From NCBI GenBank assembly GCA_948470475.1, contig OX419346.1:2585231-2649230 (forward strand): DNA of 64,000 nucleotides, in the 5' to 3' direction. Made by a program: the position numbers and the translations under genes. Every line of letters starts with the position of its first letter. The stretch's first letter is position 1. Below the pieces are notes generated by a model. It did no database searches. It was not told the origin of the DNA and saw only the letters and a program-made list of their open reading frames with translations. Of the stretch, positions 20,001 through 64,000 are shown piece after piece. Source of the DNA: Galaxea fascicularis. Lineage: Eukaryota; Cnidaria; Anthozoa; Scleractinia; Euphylliidae.

Positions 20001-23000
20001 TTAACCCCTTTGGGTTTTGGTCAAAATTTCAACTTTGCTAAAATCTTGCACACAGCTCAAATAAGAAGAGAAATAATGTTTTGGGAGTTTTTAGAAGCAT
20101 TTTAACATCATTTCTAGACTCCTCTTTGAACTAGGCAAACTTTCAGCCAAATTCCAAATTTGACCCATAACTGGCCAAAAGCATGGGTTAACCCCTTTGG
20201 GTTTTGGTCAAAATTTCAACTTTGCTGAAATCTTGCACACAGCTCAAATAAGAAGAGAAATAATGTTTTGGGAGTTTTTAGAAGCATTTCAACGTCATTT
20301 CTAGACTCCTCTTTGAACTAGGCAAACTTTCAGCCAAATTCCAAATTTGACCCAAAACTGGCCAAAAGCATGGGTTATCTCGTTTGGGTTTTGGTCAAAA
20401 TTTCAACTTGGCTGAAATCTTGCACACAGCTCAAATAAGAAGAGAAATAATGTTTTGGGAGTTTTTAGAAGCATTTCAACATCATTTCTAGACTCCTCTT
20501 TGAACTAGGCAAACTTTCAGCCAAATTCCAAATTTGACCCAAAACTGGCCAAAAGCATGGGTTAACCCCTTTGGGTTTTGGTCAAAATTTCAACTTTGCT
20601 GAAATCTTGCACACAGCTCAAACAAAAAGAGAAATAATGTTTTGGGAGTTTTTAGAAGCATTTCAACATCATTTCTAGACTCCTCTTTGAACTAGGCAAA
20701 CTTTCAGCCAAATTCCAAATTTGACCCAAAACTGGCCAAAAGCATGGGTTAACCCCTTGGGGTTTTGGTCAAAATTTCAACTTTGCTGAAATCTTGCACA
20801 CAGCTCAAATAAGAAGAGAAATAATGTTTTGAGAGTTTTTAGAAGCATTTCAACGTCATTTCTAGACTCCTCTTCGAACTAGGCAAACTTTCAGCCAAAT
20901 TCCAAATTTGACCCAAAACTGGCCAAAAGCATGGGTTAACCCCTTTGGGTTTTGGTCAAAATTTCAACTTTGCTGAAATCTTGCACACAGCTCAAATAAG
21001 AAGAGAAATAATGTTTTGGGAGTTTTTAGAAGCATTTCAACATCATTTCTAGACTCCTCTTTGAACTAGGCAAACTTTCAGCCAAATTCCAAATTTGACC
21101 CAAAACTGGCCAAAAGCATGGGTTAACCCCTTTGGGTTTTGGTCAAAATTTCAACTTTGCTGAAATCTTGCACACAGCTCAAATAAGAAGAGAAATAATG
21201 TTTTGGGAGTTTTTAGAAGCATTTCAACGTCATTTCTAGACTCCTCTTTGAACTAGGCAAACTTTCAGCCAAATTCCAAATTTGACCCAAAACTGGCCCA
21301 AAGCATGGGTTAACCCCTTTGGGTTTTGGTCAAAATTTCAACTTTGCTGAAATCTTGCACACAGCTCAAATAAGAAGAGAAATAATGTTTTGGGAGTTTT
21401 TAGAAGCATTTCAACAACATTTTTTAGACTCCTCTTTGAACTAGGCAAACTTTCAGCCAAATTCCAAATTTGACCCAAAACTGGCCAAAAGCATGGGTTA
21501 ACCCCTTTGGGTTTTGGTCAAAATTTCAACTTTGCTGAAATCTTGCACACAGCTCAAATAAGAAGAGAAATAATGTTTTGGGAGTTTTTAGAAGCATTTC
21601 AACGTCATTTCTAGACTCCTCTTTGAACTAGGCAAACTTTCAGCCAAATTCCAAATTTGACCCAAAACTGGCCCAAAGCATGGGTTAACCCCTTTGGGTT
21701 TTGGTCAAAATTTCAACTTTGCTGAAATCTTGCACACAGCTCAAATAAGAAGAGAAATAATGTTTTGGGAGTTTTTAGAAGCATTTCAACAACATTTTTT
21801 AGACTCCTCTTTGAACTAGGCAAACTTTCAGCCAAATTCCAAATTTGAGCCAAAACTGGCCAAAAGCATGGGTTAACCCCTTTGGGTTTTGGTCAAAATT
21901 TCAACTTTGCTGAAATCTTGCACACAGCTCAAATAAGAAGAGAAATAATGTTTTGGGAGTTTTTAGAAGCATTTCAACATCATTTCTAGACTCCTCTTTT
22001 AACTAGGCAAACTTTCAGCCAAATTCCAAATTTGACCCAAAACTGGCCAAAAGCATGGGTTAACCCCTTTGGGTTTTGGTCAAAATTTCAACTTTGCTGA
22101 AATCTTGCACACAGCTCAAATAAGAAGAGAAATAATGTTTTGGGAGTTTTTAGAAGCATTTCAACATCATTTCTAGACTCCTCTTTGAACTAGGCAAACT
22201 TTCAGCCAAATTCCAAATTTGACCCAAAACTGGCCAAAAGCATGGGTTAACCCCTTTGGGTTTTGGTCAAAATTTCAACTTTGCTGAAATCTTGCACACA
22301 GCTCAAACAAGAAGAGAAATAATGTTTTGGGAGTTTTTAGAAGCATTTCAACATCATTTCTAGACTCCTCTTTGAACTAGGCAAACTTTCAGCCAATTTC
22401 CAAATTTGAGCCAAAACTGGCCAAAAGCATGGGTTTTGGTCAAAATTTCAACTTTGCTGAAATCTTGCACACAGCTCAAACAAGAAGAGAAATAATGTTT
22501 TGGGAGTTTTTAGAAGCATTTCAACATCATTTCTAGACTCCTCTTTGAACTAGGCAAACTTTCAGCCAAATTCCAAATTTGACCCAAAACTGGCCAAAAG
22601 CATGGGTTAACCCCTTTGGGTTTTGGTCAAAATTTCAACTTTGCTGAAATCTTGCACACAGCTCAACTAACAAGAGAAATAATGTTTTGGGAGTTTTTAG
22701 AAGCATTTCAACGTCATTTCTAGACTCCTCTTCGAACTAGGCAAACTTTCAGCCAAATTCCAAATTTGACCCAAAACTGGCCAAAAGCATGGGTTAACCC
22801 CTTTGGGTTTTGGTCAAAATTTCAACTTTGCTGAAATCTTGCACACAGCTCAAATAAGAAGAGAAATAATGTTTTGGGAGTTTTTAGAAGCATTTCAACA
22901 TCATTTCTAGACTCCTCTTTGAACTAGGCAAACTTTCAGCCAAATTCCAAATTTGAGACAAAACTGGCCAAACGCATGGGTTAACCCCTTTGGGTTTTGG

Positions 23001-23042
23001 TCAAAATTTCAACTTTGCTGAAATCTTGCACACAGCTCAAAT

Positions 23043-26000
23043 AAGAAGAGAAATAATGTTTTGGGAGTTTTTAGAAGCATTTCAACATCATTTCTAGACT
23101 CCTCTTTGAACTAGGCAAACTTTCAGCCAAATTCCAAATTTGACCCAAAACTGGCCAAAAGCATGGGTTAACCCCTTTGGGTTTTGGTCAAAATTTCAAC
23201 TTTGCTGAAATCTTGCACACAGCTCAAACAAAAAGAGAAATAATGTTTTGGGAGTTTTTAGAAGCATTTCAACATCATTTCTAGACTCCTCTTTGAACTA
23301 GGCAAACTTTCAGCCAAATTCCAAATTTGACCCAAAACTGGCCAAAAGCATGGGTTTTGGTCAAAATTTCAACTTTGCTGAAATCTTGCACACAGCTCAA
23401 ACAAGAAGAGAAATAATGTTTTGGGAGTTTTTAGAAGCATTTCAACATCATTTCTAGACTCCTCTTTGAACTAGGCAAACTTTCAGCCAAATTCCAAATT
23501 TGACCCAAAACTGGCCAAAAGCATGGGTTAACCCCTTTGGGTTTTGGTCAAAATTTCAACTTTGCTGAAATCTTGCACACAGCTCAAACAAAAAGAGAAA
23601 TAATGTTTTGGGAGTTTTTAGAAGCATTTCAACATCATTTCTAGACTCCTCTTTGAACTAGGCAAACTTTCAGCCAAATTCCAAATTTGACCCATAACTG
23701 GCCAAAAGCATGGGTTAACCCCTTTGGGTTTTGGTCAAAATTTCAACTTTGCTGAAATCTTGCACACAGCTCAAATAAGAAGAGAAATAATGTTTTGGGA
23801 GTTTTTAGAAGCATTTCAACATCATTTCTAGACTCTTCTTTGAACTAGGCAAACTTTCAGCCAAATTCCAAATTTGACCCAAAACTGGCCAAAAGCATGC
23901 GTTTTGGTCAAAATTTCAACTTTGCTGAAATCTTGCACACAGCTCAAATAAGAAGAGAAATAATGTTTTGGGAGTTTTTAGAAGGATTTCAACATCATTT
24001 CTAGACTCCTCTTTGAACTAGGCAAACTTTTAGCCAAATTCCAAATTTGACCCATAACTGGCCAAAAGCATGGGTTAACCCCTTTGGGTTTTGGTCAAAA
24101 TTTCAACTTTGCTGAAATCTTGCACACAGCTCAAATAAGAAGAGAAATAATGTTTTGGGAGTTTTTAGAAGCATTTCAACGTCATTTCTAGACTCCTCTT
24201 TGAAGTAGGGAAACTTTCAGCCAAATTCCAAATTTGACCCAAAACTGGCCAAAAGCATGGGTTTTGGTCAAAATTTCAACTTTGCTGAAATCTTGCACAC
24301 AGCTCAAATAAGAAGAGAAATAATGTTTTGGGAGTTTTTAGAAGCATTTCAACATCATTTCTAGACTCCTCTTTGAACTAGGCAAACTTTCAGCCAAATT
24401 CCAAAACCCTTTGGGTTTTGGTCAAAATTTCAACTTTGCTGAAATCTTGCACACAGCTCAAATAAGAAGAGAAATAATGTTTTGGGAGTTTTTAGAAGCA
24501 TTTCAACATCATTTCTAGACTCCTCTTTGAACTAGGCAAACTTTCAGCCAAATTCCAAATTTGACCCATAACTGGCCAAAAGCATGGGTTAACCCCTTTG
24601 GGTTTTGGTCAAAATTTCAACTTTGCTGAAATCTTGCACACAGCTCAAATAAGAAGAGAAATAATATTTTGGGAGTTTTTAGAAGCATTTCAACATCATT
24701 TCTAGACTCCTCTTTGAACTAGGCAAACTTTCAGCCAAATTCCAAATTTGAGCCAAAACTGGCCAAAACCATGGGTTAACCCCTTTGGGTTTTGGTCAAA
24801 ATTTCAACTTTGCTGAAATCTTGCACACAGCTCAAACAAGAAGAGAAATAATGTTTTGGGAGTTTTTAGAAGCATTTCAACATCATTTCTAGACTCCTCT
24901 TTGAACTAGGCAAACTTTCAGCCAAATTCCAAAACCCTTTGGGTTTTGGTCAAAATTTCAACTTTGCTGAAATCTTGCACACAGCTCAAATAAGAAGAGA
25001 AATAATGTTTTGGGAGTTTTTAGAAGCATTTCAACATCATTTCTAGACTCCTCTTTGAACTAGGCAAACTTTCAGCCAAATTCCAAATTTGACCCATAAC
25101 TGGCCAAAAGCATGGGTTAACCCCTTTGGGTTTTGGTCAAAATTTCAACTTTGCTGAAATCTTGCACACAGCTCAAACAAAAAGAGAAATAATGTTTTGG
25201 GAGTTTTTAGAAGCATTTCAACATCATTTCTAGACTCCTCTTTGAACTAGGCAAACTTTCAGCCAAATTCCAAATTTGACCCAAAACTGGCCAAAAGCAT
25301 GGGTTTTGGTCAAAATTTCAACTTTGCTGAAATCTTGCACACAGCTCAAACAAAAAGAGAAATAATGTTTTGGGAGTTTTTAGAAGCATTTCAACATCAT
25401 TTCTAGACTCCTCTTTGAACTAGGCAAACTTTCAGCCAAATTCCAAATTTCAGCCAAAACTGGCCAAAAGCATGGGTTAACCCCTTTGGGTTTTGGTCAA
25501 AATTTCAACTTTGCTGAAATCTTGCACACAGCTCAAACAAAAAGAGAAATAATGTTTTGGGAGTTTTTAGAAGCATTTCAACATCATTTCTAGACTCCTC
25601 TTTGAACTAGGCAAACTTTCAGCCAAATTCCAAATTTGACCCAAAACTGGCCAAAAGCATGGGTTAACCCCTTTGGGTTTTGGTCAAAATTTCAACTTTG
25701 CTGAAATCTTGCACACAGCTCAAATAAGAAGAGAAATAATGTTTTGGGAGTTTTTAGAAGCATTTCAACATCATTTCTAGACTCCTCTTTGAACTAGGCA
25801 AACTTTCAGCCAAATTCCAAATTTGACCCAAAACTGGCCAAAAGCATGGGTTAACCCCTTTGGGTTTTGGTCAAAATTTCAACTTTGCTGAAATCTTGCA
25901 CACAGCTCAAATAAGAAGAGAAATAATGTTTTGGGAGTTTTTAGAAGCATTTCAACATCATTTCTAGACCCCTCTTTGAACTAGGCAAACTTTCAGCCAA

Positions 26001-29000
26001 ATTCCAAATTTGACCCAAAACTGGCCAAAAGCATGGGTTAACCCCTTTGGGTTTTGGTCAAAATTTCAACTTTGCTGAAATCTTGCACACAGCTCAAATA
26101 AGAAGAGAAATAATGTTTTGGGAGTTTTTAGAAGCATTTCAACATCATTTCTAGACTCCTCTTTGAACTAGGCAAACTTTCAGCCAAATTCCAAATTTGA
26201 CCCAAAACTGGCCAAAAGCATGGGTTTTGGTCAAAATTTCAACTTTGCTGAAATCTTGCACACAGCTCAAATAAGAAGAGAAATAATGTTTTGGGAGTTT
26301 TTAGAAGCATTTCAACATCATTTCTAGACTCCTCTTTGAACTAGGCAAACTTTCAGCCAAATTCCAAATTTGACCCAAAACTGGCCAAAAGCATGGGTTA
26401 ACCCCTTTGGGTTTTGGTCAAAATTTCAACTTTGCTGAAATCTTGCACACAGCTCAAATAAGAAGAGAAATAATGTTTTGGGAGTTTTTAGAAGCATTTC
26501 AACGTCATTTCTAGACTCCTCTTTGAACTAGGCAAACTTTCAGCCAAATTCCAAATTTGACCCAAAACTGGCCAAAAGCATGGGTTAACCCCGTTGGGTT
26601 TTGGTCAAAATTTCAACTTTGCTGAAATCTTGCACACAGCTCAAATAAGAAGAGAAATAATGTTTTGGGAGTTTTTAGAATCATTTCAACAACATTTTTT
26701 AGACTCCTCTTTGAAGTAGGCAAACTTTCAGCCAAATTCCAAATTTGACCCAAAACTGGCCAAAAGCATGGGTTAACCCCGTTGGGTTTTGGTCAAAATT
26801 TCAACTTTGCTGAAATCTTGCACACAGCTCAAATAAGAAGAGAAATAATGTTTTGGGAGTTTTTAGAAGCATTTCAACATCATTTCTAGACTCCTCTTTG
26901 AACTAGGCAAACTTTTAGCCAAATTCCAAATTTGACCCATAACTGGCCAAAAGCATGGGTTAACCCCTTTGGGTTTTGGTCAAAATTTCAACTTTGCTGA
27001 AATCTTGCACACAGCTCAAATAAGAAGAGAAATAATGTTTTGGGAGTTTTTAGAAGCATTTCAACGTCATTTCTAGACTCCTCTTTAAACTAGGCAAACT
27101 TTCAGCCAAATTCCAAATTTGAGCCAAAACTGGCCAAAAGCATGGGTTAACCCCTTTGGGTTTTGGTCAAAATTTCAACTTTGCTGAAATCTTGCACACA
27201 GCTCAAATAAGAAGAGAAATAATGTTTTGGGAGTTTTTAGAAGCATTTCAACATCATTTCTAAACTCCTCTTTGAACTAGGCAAACTTTTAGCCAAATTC
27301 CAAATTTGACCCAAAATTGGCCAAAAGCATGGGTTAACCCCTTTGGGTTTTGGTCAAAATTTCAACTTTGCTGAAATCTTGCACACAGCTCAAATAAGAA
27401 GAGAAATAATGTTTTGGGAGTTTTTAGAAGCATTTCAACGTCATTTCTAGACTCCTCTTTAAACTAGGCAAACTTTCAGCCAAATTCCAAATTTGAGCCA
27501 AAACTGGCCAAAAGCATGGGTTAACGCCTTTGGGTTTTGGTCAAAATTTCAACTTTGCTGAAATCTTGCACACAGCTCAAATAAGAAGAGAAATAATGTT
27601 TTGGGAGTTTTTAGAAGCATTTCAACATGATTTCTAGACTCCTCTTTGAACTAGGCAAACTTTCAGCCAAATTCCAAAACCCTTTGGGTTTTGGTCAAAA
27701 TTTCAACTTTGCTGAAATCTTGCACACAGCTCAAATAAGAAGAGAAATAATGTTTTGGGAGTTTTTAGAAGCATTTCAACATCATTTCTAGACTCCTCTT
27801 TGAACTAGGCAAACTTTCAGCCAAATTCCAAAACCCTTTGGGTTTTGGTCAAAATTTCAACTTTGCTGAAATCTTGCACACAGCTCAAATAAGAAGAGAA
27901 ATAATGTTTTGGCAGTTTTTAGAAGCATTTCAACATCATTTCTAGACTCCTCTTTGAACTAGGCAAACTTTCAGCCAAATTCCAAATTTGACCCATAACT
28001 GGCCAAAAGCATGGGTTAACCCCTTTGGGTTTTGGTCAAAATTTCAACTTTGCTGAAATCTTGCACACAGCTCAAATAAGAAGAGAAATAATGTTTTGGG
28101 AGTTTTTAGAAGCATTTCAACATCATTTCTAGACTCCTCTTTGAACTAGGCAAACTTTCAGCCAAATTCCAAATTTGAGCCAAAACTGGCCAAAACCATG
28201 GGTTAACCCCTTTGGGTTTTGGTCAAAATTTCAACTTTGCTGAAATCTTGCACACAGCTCAAACAAGAAGAGAAATAATGTTTTGGGAGTTTTTAGAAGC
28301 ATTTCAACATCATTTCTAGACTCCTCTTTGAACTAGGCAAACTTTCAGCGAAATTCCAAAACCCTTTGGGTTTTGGTCAAAATTTCAACTTTGCTGAAAT
28401 CTTGCACACAGCTCAAATAAGAAGAGAAATAATGTTTTGGGAGTTTTTAGAAGCATTTCAACATCATTTCTAGACTCCTCTTTGAACTAGGCAAACTTTC
28501 AGCCAAATTCCAAATTTGACCCATAACTGGCCAAAAGCATGGGTTAACCCCTTTGGGTTTTGGTCAAAATTTCAACTTTGCTGAAATCTTGCACACAGCT
28601 CAAACAAAAAGAGAAATAATGTTTTGGGAGTTTTTAGAAGCATTTCAACATCATTTCTAGACTCCTCTTTGAACTAGCCAAACTTTCAGCCAAATTCCAA
28701 ATTTGACCCAAAACTGGCCAAAAGCATGGGTTTTGGTCAAAATTTCAACTTTGCTGAAATCTTGCACACAGCTCAAACAAGAAGAGAAATAAGGTTTTGG
28801 GAGTTTTTAGAAGCATTTCAACATCATTTCTAGACTCCTCTTTGAACTAGGCAAACTTTCAGCCAAATTCCAAATTTCAGCCAAAACTGGCCAAAAGCAT
28901 GGGTTAACCCCTTTGGGTTTTGGTCAAAATTTCAACTTTGCTGAAATCTTGCACACAGCTCAAATAAGAAGAGAAATAATGTTTTGGGAGTTTTTAGAAG

Positions 29001-29699
29001 CATTTCAACATCATTTCTAGACTCCTCTTTGAACTAGGCAAACTTTCAGCCAAATTCCAAATTTGACCCAAAACTGGCCAAAAGCATGGGTTAACCCCTT
29101 TGGGTTTTGGTCAAAATTTCAACTTTGCTGAAATCTTGCACACAGCTCAAATAAGAAGAGAAATAATGTTTTGGGAGTTTTTAGAAGCATTTCAACATCA
29201 TTTCTAGACTCCTCTTTGAACTAGGCACACTTTCAGCCAAATTCCAAATTTGACCCAAAACTGGCCAAAAGCATGGGTTAACCCCTTTGGGTTTTGGTCA
29301 AAATTTCAACTTTGCTGAAATCTTGCACACAGCTCAAATAAGAAGAGAAATAATGTTTTGGGAGTTTTTAGAAGCATTTCAACATCATTTCTAGACTCCT
29401 CTTTGAACTAGGCAAACTTTCAGCCAAATTCCAAATTTCAGCCAAAACTGGCCAAAAGCATGGGTTAACCCCTTTGGGTTTTGGTCAAAATTTCAACTTT
29501 GCTGAAATCTTGCACACAGCTCAAATAAGAAGAGAAATAATGTTTTGGGAGTTTTTAGAAGCATTTCAACATCATTTCTAGACTCCTCTTTGAACTAGGC
29601 AAACTTTCAGCCAAATTCCAAATTTGACCCAAAACTGGCCAAAAGCATGGGTTTTGGTCAAAATTTCAACTTTGCTGAAATCTTGCACACAGCTCAAAC
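23043..29699 (+). repeat. higher-order repeat unit 1, copy 1 (6657 bp)
   Basis: Private variants in this block reappear exactly 6657 bp later: AAAAGCATGCG (23895/30552), GAAGGATTTC (23981/30638), TGAAGTAGGG (24201/30858), ATATTTTGGG (24664/31321), CCCCGTTGGG (26589/33246), TTAACGCC (27521/34178), GGCAG (27911/34568), GAACTAGCCA (28671/35328), CTAGGCACAC (29221/35878). Similarity ends near 29438/36095. It comprises about 37 monomers, including the 173- and 154-bp forms. Confidence 0.92.
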
Positions 29700-32600
29700 A
29701 AGAAGAGAAATAATGTTTTGGGAGTTTTTAGAAGCATTTCAACATCATTTCTAGACTCCTCTTTGAACTAGGCAAACTTTCAGCCAAATTCCAAATTTGA
29801 CCCAAAACTGGCCAAAAGCATGGGTTAACCCCTTTGGGTTTTGGTCAAAATTTCAACTTTGCTGAAATCTTGCACACAGCTCAAACAAAAAGAGAAATAA
29901 TGTTTTGGGAGTTTTTAGAAGCATTTCAACATCATTTCTAGACTCCTCTTTGAACTAGGCAAACTTTCAGCCAAATTCCAAATTTGACCCAAAACTGGCC
30001 AAAAGCATGGGTTTTGGTCAAAATTTCAACTTTGCTGAAATCTTGCACACAGCTCAAACAAGAAGAGAAATAATGTTTTGGGAGTTTTTAGAAGCATTTC
30101 AACATCATTTCTAGACTCCTCTTTGAACTAGGCAAACTTTCAGCCAAATTCCAAATTTGACCCAAAACTGGCCAAAAGCATGGGTTAACCCCTTTGGGTT
30201 TTGGTCAAAATTTCAACTTTGCTGAAATCTTGCACACAGCTCAAACAAAAAGAGAAATAATGTTTTGGGAGTTTTTAGAAGCATTTCAACATCATTTCTA
30301 GACTCCTCTTTGAACTAGGCAAACTTTCAGCCAAATTCCAAATTTGACCCATAACTGGCCAAAAGCATGGGTTAACCCCTTTGGGTTTTGGTCAAAATTT
30401 CAACTTTGCTGAAATCTTGCACACAGCTCAAATAAGAAGAGAAATAATGTTTTGGGAGTTTTTAGAAGCATTTCAACATCATTTCTAGACTCTTCTTTGA
30501 ACTAGGCAAACTTTCAGCCAAATTCCAAATTTGACCCAAAACTGGCCAAAAGCATGCGTTTTGGTCAAAATTTCAACTTTGCTGAAATCTTGCACACAGC
30601 TCAAATAAGAAGAGAAATAATGTTTTGGGAGTTTTTAGAAGGATTTCAACATCATTTCTAGACTCCTCTTTGAACTAGGCAAACTTTTAGCCAAATTCCA
30701 AATTTGACCCATAACTGGCCAAAAGCATGGGTTAACCCCTTTGGGTTTTGGTCAAAATTTCAACTTTGCTGAAATCTTGCACACAGCTCAAATAAGAAGA
30801 GAAATAATGTTTTGGGAGTTTTTAGAAGCATTTCAACGTCATTTCTAGACTCCTCTTTGAAGTAGGGAAACTTTCAGCCAAATTCCAAATTTGACCCAAA
30901 ACTGGCCAAAAGCATGGGTTTTGGTCAAAATTTCAACTTTGCTGAAATCTTGCACACAGCTCAAATAAGAAGAGAAATAATGTTTTGGGAGTTTTTAGAA
31001 GCATTTCAACATCATTTCTAGACTCCTCTTTGAACTAGGCAAACTTTCAGCCAAATTCCAAAACCCTTTGGGTTTTGGTCAAAATTTCAACTTTGCTGAA
31101 ATCTTGCACACAGCTCAAATAAGAAGAGAAATAATGTTTTGGGAGTTTTTAGAAGCATTTCAACATCATTTCTAGACTCCTCTTTGAACTAGGCAAACTT
31201 TCAGCCAAATTCCAAATTTGACCCATAACTGGCCAAAAGCATGGGTTAACCCCTTTGGGTTTTGGTCAAAATTTCAACTTTGCTGAAATCTTGCACACAG
31301 CTCAAATAAGAAGAGAAATAATATTTTGGGAGTTTTTAGAAGCATTTCAACATCATTTCTAGACTCCTCTTTGAACTAGGCAAACTTTCAGCCAAATTCC
31401 AAATTTGAGCCAAAACTGGCCAAAACCATGGGTTAACCCCTTTGGGTTTTGGTCAAAATTTCAACTTTGCTGAAATCTTGCACACAGCTCAAACAAGAAG
31501 AGAAATAATGTTTTGGGAGTTTTTAGAAGCATTTCAACATCATTTCTAGACTCCTCTTTGAACTAGGCAAACTTTCAGCCAAATTCCAAAACCCTTTGGG
31601 TTTTGGTCAAAATTTCAACTTTGCTGAAATCTTGCACACAGCTCAAATAAGAAGAGAAATAATGTTTTGGGAGTTTTTAGAAGCATTTCAACATCATTTC
31701 TAGACTCCTCTTTGAACTAGGCAAACTTTCAGCCAAATTCCAAATTTGACCCATAACTGGCCAAAAGCATGGGTTAACCCCTTTGGGTTTTGGTCAAAAT
31801 TTCAACTTTGCTGAAATCTTGCACACAGCTCAAACAAAAAGAGAAATAATGTTTTGGGAGTTTTTAGAAGCATTTCAACATCATTTCTAGACTCCTCTTT
31901 GAACTAGGCAAACTTTCAGCCAAATTCCAAATTTGACCCAAAACTGGCCAAAAGCATGGGTTTTGGTCAAAATTTCAACTTTGCTGAAATCTTGCACACA
32001 GCTCAAACAAAAAGAGAAATAATGTTTTGGGAGTTTTTAGAAGCATTTCAACATCATTTCTAGACTCCTCTTTGAACTAGGCAAACTTTCAGCCAAATTC
32101 CAAATTTCAGCCAAAACTGGCCAAAAGCATGGGTTAACCCCTTTGGGTTTTGGTCAAAATTTCAACTTTGCTGAAATCTTGCACACAGCTCAAATAAGAA
32201 GAGAAATAATGTTTTGGGAGTTTTTAGAAGCATTTCAACATCATTTCTAGACTCCTCTTTGAACTAGGCAAACTTTCAGCCAAATTCCAAATTTGACCCA
32301 AAACTGGCCAAAAGCATGGGTTAACCCCTTTGGGTTTTGGTCAAAATTTCAACTTTGCTGAAATCTTGCACACAGCTCAAATAAGAAGAGAAATAATGTT
32401 TTGGGAGTTTTTAGAAGCATTTCAACATCATTTCTAGACTCCTCTTTGAACTAGGCAAACTTTCAGCCAAATTCCAAATTTGAGCCAAAACTGGCCAAAA
32501 GCATGGGTTAACCCCTTTGGGTTTTGGTCAAAATTTCAACTTTGCTGAAATCTTGCACACAGCTCAAATAAGAAGAGAAATAATGTTTTGGGAGTTTTTA

Positions 32601-48600: not shown

Positions 48601-50115
48601 CAAAACTGGCCAAAAACATAGGTTAACCCCTTTGGGTTTTGGTCAAAATTTCAACTTTGCTGAAATCTTGCACACAGCTCAAATAAGAAGAGAAATAATG
48701 TTTTGGGAGTTTTTAGAAGCATTTCAACATCATTTCTAGACTCCTCTTTGAATTAGGCAAAGTTTTAGCCAAATTTCAAATTTGACCCAAAACTGGCCAA
48801 AAGCATGGGTTAACCCCTTTGGGTTTTGGTCAAAATTTCAACTTTGCTGAAATCTTGCACACAGCTCAAATAAGAAGAGAAATAATGTTTTGGGAGTTTT
48901 TAGAAGCATTTCAACATCATTTCTAGACTCCTCTTTGAACTAGGCAAACTTTCAGCCAAATTCCAAATTTGACCCAAAACTGTCCAAAAGCATGGGTTAA
49001 CCCCTTTGGGTTTTGGTCAAAATTTCAACTTTGCTGAAATCTTGCACACAGCTCAAAAAAGAAGAGAAATAATGTTTTGGCAATTTTTAGAAGCATTTCA
49101 ACATCATTTCTAGACTCCTCTTTGAAGTAGGCAAACTTTCAGCCAAATTCCAAATTTGACCCAAAACTGTCTAAAAGCATGGGTTAACCCCTTTGGGTTT
49201 TGGTCAAAATTTCAACTTTGCTGAAATCTTGCACACAGCTCAAATAGGAAGAGAAATAATGTTTTGGGAGTTTTTAGAAGCATTTCAACATCATTTCTAG
49301 ACTCCTCTTTGAACTAGGCAAACTTTCAGCCAAATTCCAAATTTGACCCAAAACTGGCCAAAAGCATGGGTTAACCCCTTTGGGTTTTGGTCAAAATTTC
49401 AACGTTGCTGAAATCTTGCAAACAGCTCAAATAAGAAGAGAAATAATGTTTTGGGAGTTTTTAGAAGCATTTCAACATCATTTCTAGACTCCTCTTTGAA
49501 CTAGGCAAACTTTCAGCCAAATTCCAAATTTCAGCCAAAACTGGCCAAAAGCATGGGTTAACCCCTTTGGGTTTTGGTCAAAATTTCAACTTTGCTGAAA
49601 TCTTGGAAACAGCTCAAATAAGAAGAGAAATAATGTTTTGGGAGTTTTTAGAAGCATTTCAACATCATTTCTAGACTCCTCTTTGAACTAGGCAAACTTT
49701 CAGCCAAATTCCAAATTTGACCCAAAACTGGCCAAAAGCATGGGTTAACCCCTTTGGGTTTTGGTCACAATTTCAACTTTGCTGAAATCTTGCACACAGC
49801 TCAAATAAGAAGAGAAATAATGTTTTGGGAGTTTTTAGAAGCATTTCAACATCATTTCTAGACTCCTCTTTGAACTAGGCAAACTTTCAGCCAAATTCCA
49901 AATTTGACCCAAAACTGGCCAAAAGCATGGGTTAACCCCTTTGGGTTTTGGTCAAAATTTCAACTTTGCTGAAATCTTGCACACAGCTCAAATAAGAAAA
50001 GAAATAATGTTTTGGGAGTTTTTAGAAGCATTTCAACATCATTTCTAGACTCCTCTTTGAACTAGGCAAACTTTCAGCCAAATTCCAAATTTGACCCAAA
50101 ACTGGCCAAAAGCAT
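45605..50115 (+). repeat. higher-order repeat unit 2, copy 2
   Basis: Second copy of the block above. Between about 48.5 and 48.9 kb it has one extra full monomer (with AAAAACATAGG and AATTAGGCAAAGTTTTAGCC), or copy 1 has lost one; copy 1 at that place has a 173-bp monomer and a small deletion (AGATATAATG at 44092). Confidence 0.85.
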
Positions 50116-53100: not shown

Positions 53101-56100
53101 AAAGCATGGGTTAACCCCTTTGGGTTTTGGTCAAAATTTCAACGTTGCTGAAATCTTGCACACAGCTCAAATAAGAAGAGAAATAATGTTTTGGGAGTTT
53201 TTAGAAGCATTTCAACATCATTTCTAGACTCCTCTTTGAACTAGGCAAACTTTCAGCCAAATTCCAAATTTGACCCAAAACTGGCCAAAAGCATGGGTTA
53301 ACCCCTTTGGGTTTTGGTCAAAATTTCAACTTTGCTGAAATCTTGCACACAGCTCAAATAAGAAGAGAAATAATGTTTTGGGAGTTTTTAGAAGCATTTC
53401 AACATCATTTCTAGACTCCTCTTTGAACTAGGCAAACTTTCAGCCAAATTCCAAATTTGACCCAAAACTGGCCAAAAGCATGGGTTAACCCCTTTGGGTT
53501 TTGGTCAAAATTTCAACTTTGCTGAAATCTTGCACACAGCTCAAATAAGAAGAGAAATAATGTTTTGGGAGTTTTTAGAAGCATTTCAACATCATTTCTA
53601 GACTCCTCTTTGAACTAGGCAAACTTTCAGCCAAATTCCAAATTTGACCCAAAACTGGCCAAAAGCATGGGTTAACCCCTTTGGGTTTTGGTCAAAATTT
53701 CAACGTTGCTGAAATCTTGCACACAGCTCAAATAAGAAGAGAAATAATGTTTTGGGAGTTTTTAGAAGCATTTCAACATCATTTCTAGACTCCTCTTTGA
53801 ACTAGGCAAACTTTCAGCCAAATTCCAAATTTGACCCAAAACTGGCCAAAAGCATGGGTTAACCCCTTTGGGTTTTGGTCAAAATTTCAACTTTGCTGAA
53901 ATCTTGCACACAGCTCAAATAAGAAGAGAAATAATGTTTTGGGAGTTTTTAGAAGCATTTCAACATCATTTCTAGACTCCTCTTTGAACTAGGCAAACTT
54001 TCAGCCAAATTCCAAATTTGACCCAAAACTGGCCAAAAGCATGGGTTAACCCCTTTGGGTTTTGGTCAAAATTTCAACTTTGCTGAAATCTTGCACACAG
54101 CTCAAATAAGAAGAGAAATAATGTTTTGGGAGTTTTTAGAAGCATTTCAACATCATTTCTAGACTCCTCTTTGAACTAGGCAAACTTTCAGCCAAATTCC
54201 AAATTTGACCCAAAACTGGCCAAAAGCATGGGTTAACCCCTTTGGGTTTTGGTCAAAATTTCAACGTTGCTGAAATCTTGCACACAGCTCAAATAAGAAG
54301 AGAAATAATGTTTTGGGAGTTTTTAGAAGCATTTCAACATCATTTCTAGACTCCTCTTTGAACTAGGCAAACTTTCAGCCAAATTCCAAATTTGACCCAA
54401 AACTGGCCAAAAGCATGGGTTAACCCCTTTGGGTTTTGGTCAAAATTTCAACTTTGCTGAAATCTTGCACACAGCTCAAATAAGAAGAGAAATAATGTTT
54501 TGGGAGTTTTTAGAAGCATTTCAACATCATTTCTAGACTCCTCTTTGAACTAGGCAAACTTTCAGCCAAATTCCAAATTTGACCCAAAACTGGCCAAAAG
54601 CATGGGTTAACCCCTTTGGGTTTTGGTCAAAATTTCAACTTTGCTGAAATCTTGCACACAGCTCAAATAAGAAGAGAAATAATGTTTTGGGAGTTTTTAG
54701 AAGCATTTCAACATCATTTCTAGACTCCTCTTTGAACTAGGCAAACTTTCAGCCAAATTCCAAATTTGACCCAAAACTGGCCAAAAGCATGGGTTAACCC
54801 CTTTGGGTTTTGGTCAAAATTTCAACTTTGCTGAAATCTTGCAAACAGCTCAAATAAGAAGAGAAATAATGTTTTGGGAGTTTTTAGAAGCATTTCAACA
54901 TCATTGCTAGACTCCTCTTTGAACTAGGCAAACTTTCAGCCAAATTCCAAATTTGACCCAAAACTGGCCAAAAGCATGGGTTAACCCCTTTGGGTTTTGG
55001 TCAAAATTTCAACTTTGCTGAAATCCTGCACACAGCTCAAATAAGAAGAGAAAAAATGTTTTGGGAGTTTTTAGAAGCATTTCAACATCATTTCTAGACT
55101 CCTCTTTGAACTAGGCAAACTTTCAGCCAAATTCCAAATTTGACCCAAAACTGGCCAAAAGCATGGGTTAACCCCTTTGGGTTTTGGTCAAAATTTCAAC
55201 TTTGCTGAAATCTTGCACACAGCTCAAATAAGAAGAGAAATAATGTTTTGGGAGTTTTTAGAAGCATTTCAACATCATTTCTAGACTCCTCTTTGAACTA
55301 GGCAAACTTTCAGCCAAATTCCAAATTTGACCCAAAACTGGCCAAAAGCATGGGTTAACCCCTTTGGGTTTTGGTCAAAATTTCAACTTTGCTGAAATCT
55401 TGCACACAGCTCAAATAAGAAGAGAAATAATGTTTTGGGAGTTTTTAGAAGCATTTCAACATCATTGCTAGACTCCTCTTTGAACTAGGCAAACTTTCAG
55501 CCAAATTCCAAATTTGACCCAAAACTGGCCAAAAGCATGGGTTAACCCCTTTGGGTTTTGGTCAAAATTTCAACTTTGCTGAAATCTTGCACACAGCTCA
55601 AATAAGAAGAGAAATAATGTTTTGGGAGTTTTTAGAAGCATTTCAACATCATTTCTAGACTCCTCTTTGAACTAGGCAAACGTTCAGCCAAATTCCAAAT
55701 TTGACCCAAAACTGGCCAAAAGCATGGGTTAACCCCTTTGGGTTTTGGTCAAAATTTCAACTTTGCTGAAATCTTGCACACAGCTCAAATAAGAAGAGAA
55801 ATAATGTTTTGGGAGTTTTTAGAAGCATTTCAACATCATTTCTAGACTCCTCTTTGAACTAGGCAAACTTTCAGCCAAATTCCAAATTTGACCCAAAACT
55901 GGCCAAAAGCATGGGTTAACCCCTTTGGGTTTTGGTCAAAATTTCAACTTTGCTGAAATCTTGCACACAGCTCAAATAAGAAGAGAAATAATGTTTTGGG
56001 AGTTTTTAGAAGCATTTCAACATCATTTCTAGACTCCTCTTTGAACTAGGCAAACTTTCAGCCAAATTCCAAATTTGACCCAAAACTGGCCAAAAGCATG

Positions 56101-59100
56101 GGTTAACCCCTTTGGGTTTTGGTCAAAATTTCAACGTTGCTGAAATCTTGCACACAGCTCAAATAAGAAGAGAAATAATGTTTTGGGAGTTTTTAGAAGC
56201 ATTTCAACATCATTTCTAGACTCCTCTTTGAACTAGGCAAACTTTCGGCCAAATTCCAAATTTGACCCAAAACTGGCCAAAAGCATGGGTTAGCCCCTTT
56301 GGGTTTTGGTCAAAATTTCAACTTTGCTGAAATCTTGCACACAGCTCAAATAAGAAGAGAAATAATGTTTTGGGAGTTTTTAGAAGCATTTCAACATCAT
56401 TTCTAGACTCCTCTTTGAACTAGGCAAACTTTCAGCCAAATTCCAAATTTGACCCAAAACTGGCCAAAAGCATGGGTTAACCCCTTTGGGTTTTGGTCAA
56501 AATTTCAACTTTGCTGAAATCTTGCACACAGCTCAAATAAGAAGAGAAATAATGTTTTGGGAGTTTTTAGAAGCATTTCAACATCATTTCTAGACTCCTC
56601 TTTGAACTAGGCAAACTTTCAGCCAAATTCCAAATTTGACCCAAAACTGGCCAAAAGCATGGGTTAACCCCTTTGGGTTTTGGTCAAAATTTCAACTTTG
56701 CTGAAATCTTGCACACAGCTCAAATAAGAAGAGAAATAATGTTTTGGGAGTTTTTAGAAGCATTTCAACATCATTTCTAGACTCCTCTTTGAACTAGGCA
56801 AACTTTCAGCCAAATTCCAAATTTGACCCAAAACTGGCCAAAAGCATGGGTTAACCCCTTTGGGTTTTGGTCAAAATTTCAACTTTGCTGAAATCTTGCA
56901 CACAGCTCAAATAAGAAGAGAAATAATGTTTTGGGAGTTTTTAGAAGCATTTCAACATCATTTCTAGACTCCTCTTTGAACTAGGCAAACTTTCAGCCAA
57001 ATTCCAAATTTGACCCAAAACTGGCCAAAAGCATGGGTTAACCCCTTTGGGTTTTGGTCAAAATTTCAACGTTGCTGAAATCTTGCACACAGCTCAAATA
57101 AGAAGAGAAATAATGTTTTTGGAGTTTTTAGAAGCATTTCAACATCATTTCTAGACTCCTCTTTGAACTAGGCAAACTTTCAGCCAAATTCCAAATTTGA
57201 CCCAAAACTGGCCAAAAGCATGGGTTAACCCCTTTGGGTTTTGGTCAAAATTTCAACTTTGCTGAAATCTTGCACACAGCTCAAATAAGAAGAGAAATAA
57301 TGTTTTGGGAGTTTTTAGAAGCATTTCAACATCATTTCTAGACTCCTCTTTGAACTAGGCAAACTTTCAGCCAAATTCCAAATTTGACCCAAAACTGGCC
57401 AAAAGCATGGGTTAACCCCTTTGGGTTTTGGTCAAAATTTCAACGTTGCTGAAATCTTGCACACAGCTCAAATAAGAAGAGAAATAATGTTTTGGGAGTT
57501 TTTAGAAGCATTTCAACATCATTTCTAGACTCCTCTTTGAACTAGGCAAACTTTCAGCCAAATTCCAAATTTGACCCAAAACTGGCCAAAAGCATGGGTT
57601 AACCCCTTTGGGTTTTGGTCAAAATTTCAACTTTGCTGAAATCTTGCAAACAGCTCAAATAAGAAGAGAAATAATGTTTTGGGAGTTTTTAGAAGCATTT
57701 CAACATCATTTCTAGACTCCTCTTAGAACTAGGCAAACTTTCAGCCAAATTCCAAATTTGACCCAAAACTGGCCAAAAGCATGGGTTAACCCCTTTGGGT
57801 TTTGGTCAAAATTTCAACGTTGCTGAAATCTTGCAAACAGCTCAAATAAGAAGAGAAATAATGTTTTGGGAGTTTTTAGAAGCATTTCAACATCATTTCT
57901 AGACTCCTCTTTGAACTAGGCAAACTTTCGGCCAAATTCCAAATTTGACCCAAAACTGGCCAAAAGCATGGGTTAACCCCTTTGGGTTTTGGTCAAAATT
58001 TCAACTTTGCTGAAATCTTGCCCACAGCTCAAATAAGAAGAGAAATAATGTTTTGGGAGTTTTTAGAAGCATTTCAACATCATTTCTAGACTCCTCTTTG
58101 AACTAGGCAAAGTTTCGGCCAAATTCCAAATTTGACCCAAAACTGGCCAAAAGCATGGGTTAACCCCTTTGGGTTTTGGTCAAAATTTCAACTTTGCTGA
58201 AATCTTGCACACAGCTCAAATAAGAAGAGAAAAAATGTCTTGGGAGTTTTTAGAAGCATTTCAACATCATTTCTAGACTCCTCTTTGAACTAGGCAAACT
58301 TTCAGCCAAATTCCAAATTTGACCCAAAACTGGCCAAAAGCATGGGTTAACCCCTTTGGGTTTTGGTCAAAATTTCAACTTTGCTGAAATCTTGCACACA
58401 GCTCAAATAAGAAGAGAAATAATGTTTTGGGAGTTTTTAGAAGCATTTCAACATCATTTCTAGACTCCTCTTTGAACTAGGCAAACTTTCAGCCAAATTC
58501 CAAATTTGACCCAAAACTGGCCAAAAGCATGGGTTAACCCCTTTGGGTTTTGGTCAAAATTTCAACGTTGCTGAAATCTTGCACACAGCTCAAATAAGAA
58601 GAGAAAAAATGTTTTGGGAGTTTTTAGAAGCATTTCAACATCATTTCTAGACTCCTCTTTGAACTAGGCAAACTTTCAGCCAAATTCCAAATTTGACCCA
58701 AAACTGGCCAAAAGCATGGGTTAACCCCTTTGGGTTTTGGTCAAAATTTCAACGTTGCTGAAATCTTGCAAACAGCTCAAATAAGAAGAGAAATAATGTT
58801 TTGGGAGTTTTTAGAAGCATTTCAACATCATTTCTAGACTCCTCTTTGAACTAGGCAAACTTTCAGCCAAATTCCAAATTTGACCCAAAACTGGCCAAAA
58901 GCATGGGTTAACCCCTTTGGGTTTTGGTCAAAATTTCAACGTTGCTGAAATCTTGCACACAGCTCAAATAAGAAGAGAAATAATGTTTTGGGAGTTTTTA
59001 GAAGCATTTCAACATCATTTCTAGACTCCTCTTTGAACTAGGCAAACTTTCAGCCAAATTCCAAATTTGACCCAAAACTGGCCAAAAGCATGGGTTAACC

Positions 59101-62100
59101 CCTTTGGGTTTTGGTCAAAATTTCAACTTTGCTGAAATCTTGCACACAGCTCAAATAAGAAGAGAAATAATGTTTTGGGAGTTTTTAGAAGCATTTCAAC
59201 ATCATTTCTAGACTCCTCTTTGAACTAGGCAAACTTTCAGCCAAATTCCAAATTTGACCCAAAACTGGCCAAAAGCATGGGTTAACCCCTTTGGGTTTTG
59301 GTCAAAATTTCAACGTTGCTGAAATCTTGCACACAGCTCAAATAAGAAGAGAAAAAATGTTTTGGGAGTTTTTAGAAGCATTTCAACATCATTTCTAGAC
59401 TCCTCTTTGAACTAGGCAAACTTTCAGCCAAATTCCAAATTTGACCCAGAAGCATTTCAACATCATTTCTAGACTCCTCTTTGAACTAGGCAAACTTTCA
59501 GCCAAATTCCAAATTTGACCCAAAACTGGCCAAAAGCATGGGTTAACCCCTTTGGGTTTTGGTCAAAATTTCAACTTTGCTGAAATCTTGCAAACAGCTC
59601 AAATAAGAAGAGAAATAATGTTTTGGGAGTTTTTAGAAGCATTTCAACATCATTTCTAGACTCCTCTTTGAACTAGGCAAACTTTCAGCCAAATTCCAAA
59701 TTTGACCCATGGGTTAACCCCTTTGGGTTTTGGTCAAAATTTCAACTTTGCTGAAATCTTGCACACAGCTCAAATAAGAAGAGAAATAATGTTTTGGGAG
59801 TTTTTAGAAGCATTTCAACATCATTTCTAGACTCCTCTTTGAACTAGGCAAACTTTCAGCCAAATTCCAAATTTGACCCAAAACTGGCCAAAAGCATGGG
59901 TTAACCCCTTTGGGTTTTGGTCAAAATTTCAACTTTGCTGAAATCTTGCACACAGCTCAAATAAGAAGAGAAATAATGTTTTGGGAGTTTTTAGAAGCAT
60001 TTCAACATCATTTCTAGACTCCTCTTTGAACTAGGCAAACGTTCAGCCAAATTCCAAATTTGACCCAAAACTGGCCAAAAGCATGGGTTAACCCCTTTGG
60101 GTTTTGGTCAAAATTTCAACTTTGCTGAAATCTTGGACACAGCTCAAATAAGAAGAGAAATAATGTTTTGGGAGTTTTTAGAAGCATTTCAACATCATTT
60201 CTAGACTCCTCTTTGAACTAGGCAAACTTTCAGCCAAATTCCAAATTTGACCCAAAACTGGCCAAAAGCATGGGTTAACCCCTTTGGGTTTTGGTCAAAA
60301 TTTCAACTTTGCTGAAATCTTGCACACAGCTCAAATAAGAAGAGAAATAATGTTTTGGGAGTTTTTAGAAGCATTTCAACATCATTTCTAGACTCCTCTT
60401 TGAACTAGGCAAACTTTCAGCCAAATTCCAAATTTGACCCAAAACTGGCCAAAAGCATGGGTTAACCCCTTTGGGTTTTGGTCAAAATTTCAAGGTTGCT
60501 AAAATCTTGCACACAGCTCAAATAAGAAGAGAAATAATGTTTTGGGAGTTTTTAGAAGCATTTCAACATCATTTCTAGACTCCTCTTTGAACTAGGCAAA
60601 CTTTCGGCCAAATTCCAAATTTGACCCAAAACTGGCCAAAAGCATGGGTTAGCCCCTTTGGGTTTTGGTCAAAATTTCAACTTTGCTGAAATCTTGCACA
60701 CAGCTCAAATAAGAAGAGAAATAATGTTTTGGGAGTTTTTAGAAGCATTTCAACATCATTTCTAGACTCCTCTTTGAACTAGGCAAACTTTCAGCCAAAT
60801 TCCAAATTTGACCCAAAACTGGCCAAAAGCATGGGTTAACCCCTTTGGGTTTTGGTCAAAATTTCAACTTTGCTGAAATCTTGCACACAGCTCAAATAAG
60901 AAGAGAAATAATGTTTTGGGAGTTTTTAGAAGCGTTTCAACATCATTTCTAGACTCCTCTTTGAACTAGGCAAACTTTCAGCCAAATTCCAAATTTGACC
61001 CAAAACTGGCCAAAAGCATGGGTTAACCCCTTTGGGTTTTGGTCAAAATTTCAACTTTGCTGAAATCTTGCACACAGCTCAAATAAGAAGAGAAATAATG
61101 TTTTGGGAGTTTTTAGAAGCATTTCAACATCATTTCTAGACTCCTCTTTGAACTAGGCAAACTTTCAGCCAAATTCCAAATTTGACCCAAAACTGGCCAA
61201 AAGCATGGGTTAACCCCTTTGGGTTTTGGTCAAAATTTCAACGTTGCTGAAATCTTGCACACAGCTCAAATAAGAAGAGAAATAATGTTTTTGGAGTTTT
61301 TAGAAGCATTTCAACATCATTTCTAGACTCCTCTTTGAACTAGGCAAACTTTCAGCCAAATTCCAAATTTGACCCAAAACTGGCCAAAAGCATGGGTTAA
61401 CCCCTTTGGGTTTTGGTCAAAATTTCAACTTTGCTGAAATCTTGCACACAGCTCAAATAAGAAGAGAAATAATGTTTTGGGAGTTTTTAGAAGCATTTCA
61501 ACATCATTTCTAGACTCCTCTTTGAACTAGGCAAACTTTCAGCCAAATTCCAAATTTGACCCAAAACTGGCCAAAAGCATGGGTTAACCCCTTTGGGTTT
61601 TGGTCAAAATTTCAACGTTGCTGAAATCTTGCAAACAGCTCAAATAAGAAGAGAAATAATGTTTTGGGAGTTTTTAGAAGCATTTCAACATCATTTCTAG
61701 ACTCCTCTTTGAACTAGGCAAACTTTCAGCCAAATTCCAAATTTGACCCAAAACTGGCCAAAAGCATGGGTTAACCCCTTTGGGTTTTGGTCAAAATTTC
61801 AACGTTGCTGAAATCTTGCAAACAGCTCAAATAAGAAGAGAAATAATGTTTTGGGAGTTTTTAGAAGCATTTCAACATCATTTCTAGACTCCTCTTTGAA
61901 CTAGGCAAACTTTCAGCCAAATTCCAAATTTGACCCAAAACTGGCCAAAAGCATGGGTTAACCCCTTTGGGTTTTGGTCAAAATTTCAACTTTGCTGAAA
62001 TCTTGCACACAGCTCAAATAAGAAGAGAAATAATGTTTTGGGAGTTTTTAGAAGCATTTCAACATCATTTCTAGACTCCTCTTTGAACTAGGCAAACTTT

Positions 62101-64000
62101 CAGCCAAATTCCAAATTTGACCCAAAACTGGCCAAAAGCATGGGTTAACCCCTTTGGGTTTTGGTCAAAATTTCAACTTTGCTGAAATCTTGCACACAGC
62201 TCAAATAAGAAGAGAAATAATGTTTTGGGAGTTTTTAGAAGCATTTCAACATCATTTCTAGACTCCTCTTTGAACTAGGCAAACTTTCAGCCAAATTCCA
62301 AATTTGACCCAAAACTGGCCAAAAGCATGGGTTAACCCCTTTGGGTTTTGGTCAAAATTTCAACTTTGCTGAAATCTTGCACACAGCTCAAATAAGAAGA
62401 GAAATAATGTTTTGGGAGTTTTTAGAAGCATTTCAACATCATTTCTAGACTCCTCTTTGAACTAGGCAAACTTTCAGCCAAATTCCAAATTTGACCCAAA
62501 ACTGGCCAAAAGCATGGGTTAACCCCTTTGGGTTTTGGTCCAAATTTCAACTTTGCTGAAATCTTGCACACAGCTCAAATAAGAAGAGAAATAATGTTTT
62601 GGGAGTTTTTAGAAGCATTTCAACATCATTTCTAGACTCCTCTTTGAACTAGGCAAACTTTCAGCCAAATTCCAAATTTGACCCAAAACTGGCCAAAAGC
62701 ATGGGTTAACCCCTTTGGGTTTTGGTCAAAATTTCAACGTTGCTGAAATCTTGCACACAGCTCAAATAAGAAGAGAAATAATGTTTTGGGAGTTTTTAGA
62801 AGCATTTCAACATCATTTCTAGACTCCTCTTTGAACTAGGCAAACTTTCGGCCAAATTCCAAATTTGACCCAAAACTGGCCAAAAGCATGGGTTAACCCC
62901 TTTGGGTTTTGGTCCAAATTTCAACTTTGCTGAAATCTTGCACACAGCTCAAATAAGAAGAGAAATAATGTTTTTGGAGTTTTTAGAAGCATTTCAACAT
63001 CATTTCTAGACTCCTCTTTGAACTAGGCAAACTTTCAGCCAAATTCCAAATTTGACCCAAAACTGGCCAAAAGCATGGGTTAACCCCTTTGGGTTTTGGT
63101 CAAAATTTCAACTTTGCTGAAATCTTGCACACAGCTCAAATAAGAAGAGAAATAATGTTTTGGGAGTTTTTAGAAGCATTTCAACATCATTTCTAGACTC
63201 CTCTTTGAACTAGGCAAACTTTCAGCCAAATTCCAAATTTGACCCAAAACTGGCCAAAAGCATGGGTTAACCCCTTTGGGTTTTGGTCAAAATTTCAACG
63301 TTGCTGAAATCTTGGACACAGCTCAAATAAGAAGAGAAATAATGTTTTGGGAGTTTTTAGAAGCATTTCAACATCATTTCTAGACTCCTCTTTGAACTAG
63401 GCAAACTTTCAGCCAAATTCCAAATTTGACCCAAAACTGGCCAAAAGCATGGGTTAACCCCTTTGGGTTTTGGTCAAAATTTCAACGTTGCTGAAATCTT
63501 GCAAACAGCTCAAATAAGAAGAGAAATAATGTTTTGGGAGTTTTTAGAAGCATTTCAACATCATTTCTAGACTCCTCTTTGAACTAGGCAAACTTTCAGC
63601 CAAATTCCAAATTTGACCCAAAACTGGCCAAAAGCATGGGTTAACCCCTTTGGGTTTTGGTCAAAATTTCAACGTTGCTGAAATCTTGCAAACAGCTCAA
63701 ATAAGAAGAGAAATAATGTTTTGGGAGTTTTTAGAAGCATTTCAACATCATTTCTAGACTCCTCTTTGAACTAGGCAAACTTTCAGCCAAATTCCAAATT
63801 TGACCCAAAACTGGCCAAAAGCATGGGTTAACCCCTTTGGGTTTTGGTCAAAATTTCAACTTTGCTGAAATCTTGCACACAGCTCAAATAAGAAGAGAAA
63901 TAATGTTTTGGGAGTTTTTAGAAGCATTTCAACATCATTTCTAGACTCCTCTTTGAACTAGGCAAACTTTCAGCCAAATTCCAAATTTGACCCAAAACTG
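50116..64000 (+). repeat. most homogeneous part of the satellite array
   Basis: Here nearly all monomers are full 187-bp copies that differ only at a few sites, mainly CAACTTTGC/CAACGTTGC and GCACACAG/GCAAACAG. The 173- and 154-bp forms are absent. A long-range duplication is visible: CTTTCGGCC followed by GGGTTAGCCCC at about 56246-56295 and again 4359 bp later. Confidence 0.85.
59440..59470 (+). repeat. deletion junction between monomers
   Basis: TTTGACCCA runs straight into GAAGCATTTCAAC, dropping the greater part of a monomer from the middle of one unit to the middle of the next. A second irregular junction near 59707 (GACCCATGGGTTAA) has lost about 16 bp. Confidence 0.85.

What the first reader, a model, noticed from the sequence alone, without database searches (positions are those of the whole stretch)
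20001..64000. Very long uninterrupted 187-bp satellite, candidate (peri)centromeric array
At least 44 kb of head-to-tail monomers in one orientation, about 240 copies, with no inserted transposon and no gene. The length near nucleosome-repeat size, the higher-order structure and the decayed edge resemble centromeric satellites. Cnidarian centromere satellites are, to my knowledge, little described. The role is inference.
Basis: partly seen in the sequence, partly recalled or inferred. Interest (0 to 1): 0.8.

Follow-up and report, generated by a model that had tools for sequence, protein, structure and literature searches.

The report
Dispersed 187-bp satellite DNA array
This is a real, very uniform stretch of tandem repeat DNA, about 315 kb long, in an animal that may be a coral, but the same repeat family sits at several separate places on at least five chromosomes, so calling it the centromere is not yet justified.

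Summary
The array starts at window 19,927 and runs past the window to C12:2,919,798 (about 315 kb; the middle was sampled). In the window, 186 of 239 monomers are exactly 187 bp and mean identity to consensus is 99.1%. There is no regular higher-order repeat: the one outlying lag is a single 6,657-bp block duplication. The 187-bp monomer is itself a decayed palindrome (two ~90-bp halves, about 67% alike) with no CpG in its consensus. The family is not confined here: a 28-base core has 18,746 matches with up to 3 mismatches genome-wide (control 0), and places were seen on C1, C2, C3, C10 and C12; eight chromosomes are undetermined. C12 alone has at least seven arrays or sites, both orientations, over 5.2 Mb, with exon-like sequence between some. 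The centromere reading is neither shown nor excluded. Most likely it is an ordinary expanding satellite family, new in sequence as far as I could search, possibly pericentromeric.

The parts
19927..64000 (+). Left 44,074 bp of a ~315-kb array of 187-bp monomers (continues to C12:2,919,798)
   Evidence: Wraparound alignment; monomer statistics; right edge
19844..19923 (+). Decayed half-monomer at the left edge (78.8% identical to consensus)
   Evidence: blastn
22986..29660 (+). First copy of a block duplicated at a lag of 6,657 bp (37 monomers), 99.75% identical, longest exact run 3,611 bp
29643..36317 (+). Second copy of the 6,657-bp block
   Evidence: coordinates are the first copy plus the lag
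20559..20568 (.). Example of the monomer's dyad centre GGGTTAACCC (consensus positions 13-22)
   Evidence: read off the sequence
22428..22440 (+). Example of the 173-bp unit class: 14 bp between GGGTT direct repeats are absent, which removes the palindrome; 23 units of 173 bp among 161 anchored in the window
59374..59522 (+). 74-bp local tandem duplication inside a monomer, the largest irregularity of the array in the window

Best explanation
A genome-wide satellite family with 177- and 187-bp monomers has expanded into many separate arrays on at least five of thirteen chromosome-scale scaffolds. The window holds the left end of one array of about 315 kb. Its monomer descends from a ~90-bp unit duplicated in inverted order (inferred from the dyad). 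Arrays grow and stay uniform by unequal exchange and block duplication within each array; the pattern is shown (array-specific variants, a 6,657-bp duplication, recurrent shortened units), the exchange itself is inferred. It has no long reading frame. Its most likely role is passive: heterochromatin-type selfish DNA, tolerated between genes and perhaps concentrated near centromeres, with no centromere function shown.
For: 18,746 core matches (7,667 forward, 11,079 reverse; control 0 and 0) in 416.6 Mb, about 3.4 Mb or 0.8% of the genome at ~180 bp each (my conversion). Places on C1, C2, C3, C10, C12. C12 has at least seven: 1 to 15-20 kb (177, -), ~235-306 kb (177, +), ~574-660 kb (177, -), ~1.20-1.35 Mb (187, +), 2.605-2.920 Mb (187, +), 3.72-3.77 Mb (+) and two hits at 5.18 Mb (-). 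Between arrays: a Myb-type domain at 150 kb and ankyrin repeats at 0.5 Mb. Identity within an array 95.4-98.6%, between arrays 88.7-96.7%. Longest open frame in the tiled consensus 46 codons.
Against: Listed exact core matches on C1 lie almost all at 6.579-6.598 Mb and those listed on C2 at 5.2-6.1 Mb: one zone per chromosome would be more centromere-like than random dispersal. Eight chromosomes, and all matches with 1-3 mismatches, could not be listed. C12's left end is satellite without telomere, which could be the edge of an unassembled centromere.
Confidence: 0.6

Rival explanations
1. Pericentromeric or centromeric satellite: the family marks one zone per chromosome, and some arrays (perhaps this one) carry CENP-A chromatin or flank it; C12 is acrocentric, or its short arm is missing from the assembly.
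For: One dominant place among exact matches on C1, and 5.2-6.1 Mb on C2 as far as listed; C12's arrays crowd the end that lacks a telomere; near-nucleosome-repeat length; whole-monomer dyad symmetry of the 187-bp consensus (0 of 500 and 0 of 300 shuffles) and arrays in both orientations, features reported for putative (peri)centromeric satellites of Tribolium (PMC13081366, abstract); lower divergence beyond 52 kb than near the edge, though not a steady gradient.
Against: At least seven arrays or sites over 5.2 Mb of C12 with exon-like sequence between some; a C1 exact match 8 Mb from the main place; on C10, 15 of 15 readable probes from 7.6 to 9.5 Mb outside the ~40-kb array are free of it; no CENP-B-box match, best 3 mismatches of 9 core bases; a paper on Atlantic Acropora associates presumed centromeres with LINE peaks (PMC11577847, passages).
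Confidence: 0.3
2. Subtelomeric or terminal heterochromatin satellite, seen here near the end of C12.
For: Known C12 arrays lie in its left 5.2 Mb of 22.1 Mb and the scaffold starts in satellite. In Acropora pruinosa whole-genome hybridisation marked the telomeric region of one chromosome only (PMC8167085, passages).
Against: Sites on C1 at 6.2-14.4 Mb, C2 at 5.2-6.1 Mb, C3 at 21.9 Mb and C10 at 8.6 Mb are deep inside; 0 of 22 readable end probes and 0 of 17 readable probes 0.3 Mb from ends on the other chromosomes are satellite.
Confidence: 0.06
3. Length or arrangement is partly an assembly artefact (falsely expanded or collapsed array; the 6,657-bp block copied by the assembler).
For: Long uniform arrays are hard to assemble; the block copies are 99.75% alike with a 3,611-bp exact run; C12's left end stops inside satellite.
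Against: The block copies differ at some sites and variants change along the array; the right boundary is a clean junction to other DNA. The family's abundance rests on many places, not on this array.
Confidence: 0.04

Closest known systems
Alpha satellite and other centromeric satellites of ~150-190 bp (recalled)
   Same: Monomer near nucleosome-repeat length, long head-to-tail arrays, local homogenisation, a diverged edge
   Different: No sequence comparison was made; no regular higher-order repeat here, no CENP-B box, CENP-A untested, several arrays per chromosome with exon-like sequence between some
Tribolium madens major/minor satellites with macro-dyad symmetries (PMC13081366, abstract seen)
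   Same: Two related satellites from one ~110-bp element there; two related monomer classes from an inferred ~90-bp unit here; arrays in both orientations
   Different: There 38% of the genome, with inversion sites inside the arrays; here about 0.8%, and the opposite-strand C12 arrays seen lie hundreds of kilobases apart; the dyad seen here is inside the monomer
Coral centromere probes MA-13C (111 bp, Micromussa) and FP-9X (357 bp, Favites) (PMC12355185, PMC9005458, passages seen)
   Same: Repeat-type FISH probes that mark a coral centromere
   Different: Each marked the centromere of one chromosome; their sequences are in supplements or GenBank records that I did not read, so no comparison was made

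Membership tests
Satellite DNA family | Long head-to-tail arrays of a near-identical non-coding unit | tested here: met
Satellite DNA family | Concerted evolution: copies more alike within an array than between arrays | tested here: met
   Within 95.4-98.6%, between 88.7-96.7%; six arrays, 39 monomers. The two 187-bp arrays intermix in the tree
Centromeric satellite | Bound by CENP-A (CenH3) chromatin | not testable with these tools
   Needs ChIP or CUT&RUN
Centromeric satellite | Present on all or nearly all chromosomes, one zone each | tested here: inconclusive
   Seen on 5 of 13 chromosome-scale scaffolds; the list holds exact matches only and stops on C2; eight chromosomes undetermined; C12 has at least seven arrays or sites, C1 three places
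Centromeric satellite | Co-located with the primary constriction | not testable with these tools
   Species unnamed; no karyotype or FISH for it
CENP-B-box satellite | NTTCGNNNNANNCGGGN motif (recalled) | tested here: not met
   No match in the 64-kb window on either strand; best in the consensus 3 mismatches of 9 fixed bases
Higher-order-repeat array (alpha-satellite type) | Regular multi-monomer period with higher identity than neighbouring monomers | tested here: not met
   Lags 1-44 at 0.984-0.986 except lag 37 (0.987), from one block duplication; tested in the window's 44 kb only
Subtelomeric satellite | Arrays next to telomeres of many chromosomes | tested here: not met
   0 of 22 readable end probes of 600 bases on the other twelve chromosomes; sites deep inside C1, C2, C3, C10

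The most novel reading that the evidence does not exclude
The family is the (peri)centromeric satellite of this animal: one zone per chromosome, with arrays in both orientations and a monomer that is itself an inverted duplication free of CpG, so that dyad symmetry rather than a CENP-B box is the structural hallmark. If the animal is a coral, it would be a sequence-defined centromere candidate outside bilaterian animals.
Probability: 0.25. Interest if true: 0.7.

Novelty: new member of a known kind. Interest (0 to 1): 0.4.

Why it matters
Centromere DNA of cnidarians appears little described: the coral papers that I saw in passages use single FISH markers or LINE density as proxies. An assembled, partly mapped satellite with defined variants gives FISH probes and targets for CENP-A mapping. 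If one zone per chromosome holds, the centromere question in this group becomes directly testable; if not, it is a well-resolved case of satellite turnover between genes.

Tried and rejected
Regular dimer (374-bp) higher-order repeat: rejected, lag-2 identity is about equal to lag-1, although Tandem Repeats Finder lists a 374-bp row.

Coding capacity: rejected, longest frame 46 codons in the tiled consensus. Rfam (gathering threshold) and tRNA scans of the window hit only one tRNA, in the left flank. Of 21 stop-to-stop frames of at least 90 codons in the left 20 kb, 20 were scanned against Pfam; the only match above a curated cut-off is the reverse transcriptase; the 21st (4205-4483, low complexity) was not scanned.

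Stable hairpin per monomer: not supported, z -1.42 and -1.29 against shuffles, although the sequence dyad of the 187-bp consensus is beyond all shuffles. In the local test the two 177-bp variants do not exceed shuffles (42 against a shuffle maximum of 54, and 26 against 50, 200 shuffles each), so the dyad claim rests on the 187-bp consensus.

Confinement to the left 3 Mb of C12: my working view from probes (0 of 14 readable probes between 4 and 21 Mb of C12), overturned.

Viral contigs: one 25-base exact scan, no match. Papers: nine searches. '187 bp' or '187-bp' was a term only, and '177' in none; no listing or passage that I saw describes this satellite. bioRxiv and most subscription papers are not held.

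Full report
OBSERVATION. From window position 19,927 to the end, a wraparound alignment to one monomer runs without a break. Of 239 monomers longer than 100 bp, 186 are exactly 187 bp; mean identity to consensus is 99.1% and 51 are identical to it. The window is C12:2,585,231-2,649,230 of a 416.6-Mb assembly with 170 contigs. The array's right end is at C12:2,919,798, where it stops sharply against other DNA. The array is therefore about 314.6 kb, roughly 1,700 monomers if uniform. Beyond the window it was sampled by 30 loci of 3.4 kb, some overlapping, and by three further stretches, all satellite, not read in full.

STRUCTURE OF THE ARRAY. Mean identity between monomers stays at 0.984-0.986 for lags 1 to 44 except lag 37 (0.9873; 47 of 202 pairs identical), so there is no regular higher-order repeat in the window. 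Lag 37 is one block, 22,986-29,660, repeated 6,657 bp further on at 99.75% identity with a 3,611-bp exact run. Two recurrent short units occur: 173 bp (23) and 154 bp (12) among 161 anchored units. The 14-bp loss lies between GGGTT direct repeats and removes the palindrome GGGTTAACCC; slippage is my inference. Mean divergence from consensus per 4-kb bin is 1.1% at the left edge, 0.7-1.0% up to 52 kb and 0.4-0.7% beyond, not a steady gradient.

THE MONOMER IS A DECAYED PALINDROME. The circular 187-bp consensus aligns to its own reverse complement along its whole length: local score 64 against a shuffle mean of 22.8, 0 of 500 shuffles reaching it (from another starting base 56, against a maximum of 42 in 200 shuffles). 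Best half-against-half score 79 against 48.4 (sd 5.1, maximum 66), 0 of 300. The halves agree in 68 of 101 columns. Two 177-bp variants show 65-66% between halves in the same register but do not beat shuffles in the local test. Predicted folding is not beyond shuffles. I therefore claim an origin by inverted duplication, not a present hairpin. The consensus has no CpG (6.3 expected; 8 of 20,000 shuffles have none); CpG observed/expected is 0.05 in the array and 0.85 in the left flank.

THE FAMILY IN THE GENOME. Thirteen scaffolds of 18.7-44.6 Mb hold 412.3 of 416.6 Mb (lengths; sum mine). A 28-base core with up to 3 mismatches matches 7,667 times forward and 11,079 times in reverse, with a reversed-pattern control of 0 and 0. 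At about 180 bp per match this is some 3.4 Mb, 0.8% of the genome; the conversion is mine. The list of places shows exact matches only and stops on C2. Taking it as ordered by contig, exact matches on C1 fall almost all at 6,578,818-6,598,081, two at 6.16 Mb and one at 14.44 Mb; on C2 at 5.20, 6.01 and 6.11 Mb before the list is cut. Where the many matches with 1-3 mismatches lie is not known. Other searches, whose lists are also capped, add C3:21.877-21.881 Mb and C10:8.594-8.635 Mb. Eight chromosomes are undetermined.

C12. Of 46 probes between 1 and 2.585 Mb, one was withheld and 20 of 45 readable were satellite; probes were placed to follow arrays, so this is not a density, and array extents between probes are inferred. 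They show arrays at 1 to 15-20 kb (177 bp, minus), about 235-306 kb (177, plus), about 574-660 kb (177, minus) and about 1.20-1.35 Mb (187, plus), besides the window's. One search adds 3.72-3.77 Mb (plus, with gaps in the list) and two hits at 5.18 Mb (minus). Between arrays, probes hit a Myb-type domain at 150 kb, ankyrin repeats at 0.5 Mb and a DDE_Tnp_4 transposase frame at 2.50 Mb. C12's left end is satellite without telomere. Its right end holds degenerate telomere-like repeats, mostly in the CCCTAA sense with a short TTAGGG run at the tip, so it is not a clean telomere.

OTHER CHROMOSOME ENDS. Of 24 end probes on C1-C11 and C13, 22 were readable and none was satellite; telomere repeats were clear at both ends of C5 and at the starts of C9 and C11. 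Of 19 probes 0.3 Mb from ends of those chromosomes, 17 were readable and none was satellite. On C10, 15 of 15 readable probes outside the array between 7.6 and 9.5 Mb were negative, four more being withheld. These probes are sparse: on C12 such probes missed two places that one search found.

ARRAY RELATIONSHIPS. Monomers within an array are 95.4-98.6% alike, between arrays 88.7-96.7% (39 monomers from six arrays, the window's 161 anchored monomers sampled down to 14, and only 3 to 8 from each of the others). Four arrays cluster by themselves in the tree, the C10 one with modest support; the two 187-bp arrays on C12 intermix. The 187-bp type carries 10 bp that the 177-bp types lack.

WHAT IT DOES. 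Shown: a satellite family at many places, locally homogenised, with block duplication. Inferred: unequal exchange as the engine, and a passive, heterochromatin-type role. The centromere reading keeps weight because listed exact matches concentrate in one zone on C1 and C2 and because C12's arrays crowd an end without telomere. It loses weight because places are several per chromosome and exon-like sequence lies between some. I put about 0.3 on a (peri)centromeric association.

LITERATURE SEEN. Passages of PMC11577847 (centromeric regions of Atlantic Acropora appear associated with LINEs), PMC12355185 and PMC9005458 (one-chromosome centromere markers), PMC8167085 (A. pruinosa: 2n = 28, whole-genome hybridisation at the telomeric region of one chromosome) and PMC10194864; abstract and outline of PMC13081366. 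Others were seen only in search listings. Work on alpha satellite and the CENP-B box is recalled.

ORGANISM. The records are unnamed. The flank LINE's one named relative among the 120 listed hits (of 7,822) is Acropora digitifera (62%), and telomeres are TTAGGG. A stony coral is plausible, not proven; 13 large scaffolds do not match the 2n = 28 reported for Acropora.

Noticed in passing
window 15128-16942: Second, older tandem repeat of ~158 bp (about 9 copies in two blocks, roughly 67-80% alike), interrupted at about 15,609-16,015 by a foldback element whose 53-bp terminal inverted repeats are 96% alike, MITE-like.
   Followed up: partly
window 19068-19806: Decayed repeat of ~200-250 bp directly left of the array (copies 72-73% alike), with no blastn match to the 187-bp monomer at E 0.01.
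   Followed up: partly
window 11202-14033 (-): Broken non-LTR retrotransposon (reverse transcriptase PF00078, sub-threshold endonuclease match), jockey-like by its one named relative.
   Followed up: partly
window 5270-5343 (-): tRNA-Arg (TCT), above the Rfam cut-off.
   Followed up: no
window 19927-64000: CpG is almost absent from the array (observed/expected 0.05 against 0.85 in the left flank), with CpA raised (1.38); methylation-driven loss is one explanation.
   Followed up: partly
L173 (G000:C10:8600001-8602000): Array on C10 in which 177-bp and 164-bp units occur (4 and 2 of 6 anchored), possibly a dimer; the capped list shows no match at about 8.611-8.621 Mb inside it.
   Followed up: partly
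L100 (G000:C12:2200001-2200400): Another short-unit tandem repeat that stays open in several frames.
   Followed up: no
L042 (G000:C12:22086797-22087396): Right end of C12: degenerate telomere-like repeats mostly in the CCCTAA sense, with a short TTAGGG run at the very tip, an orientation not expected of a simple right-hand telomere.
   Followed up: no
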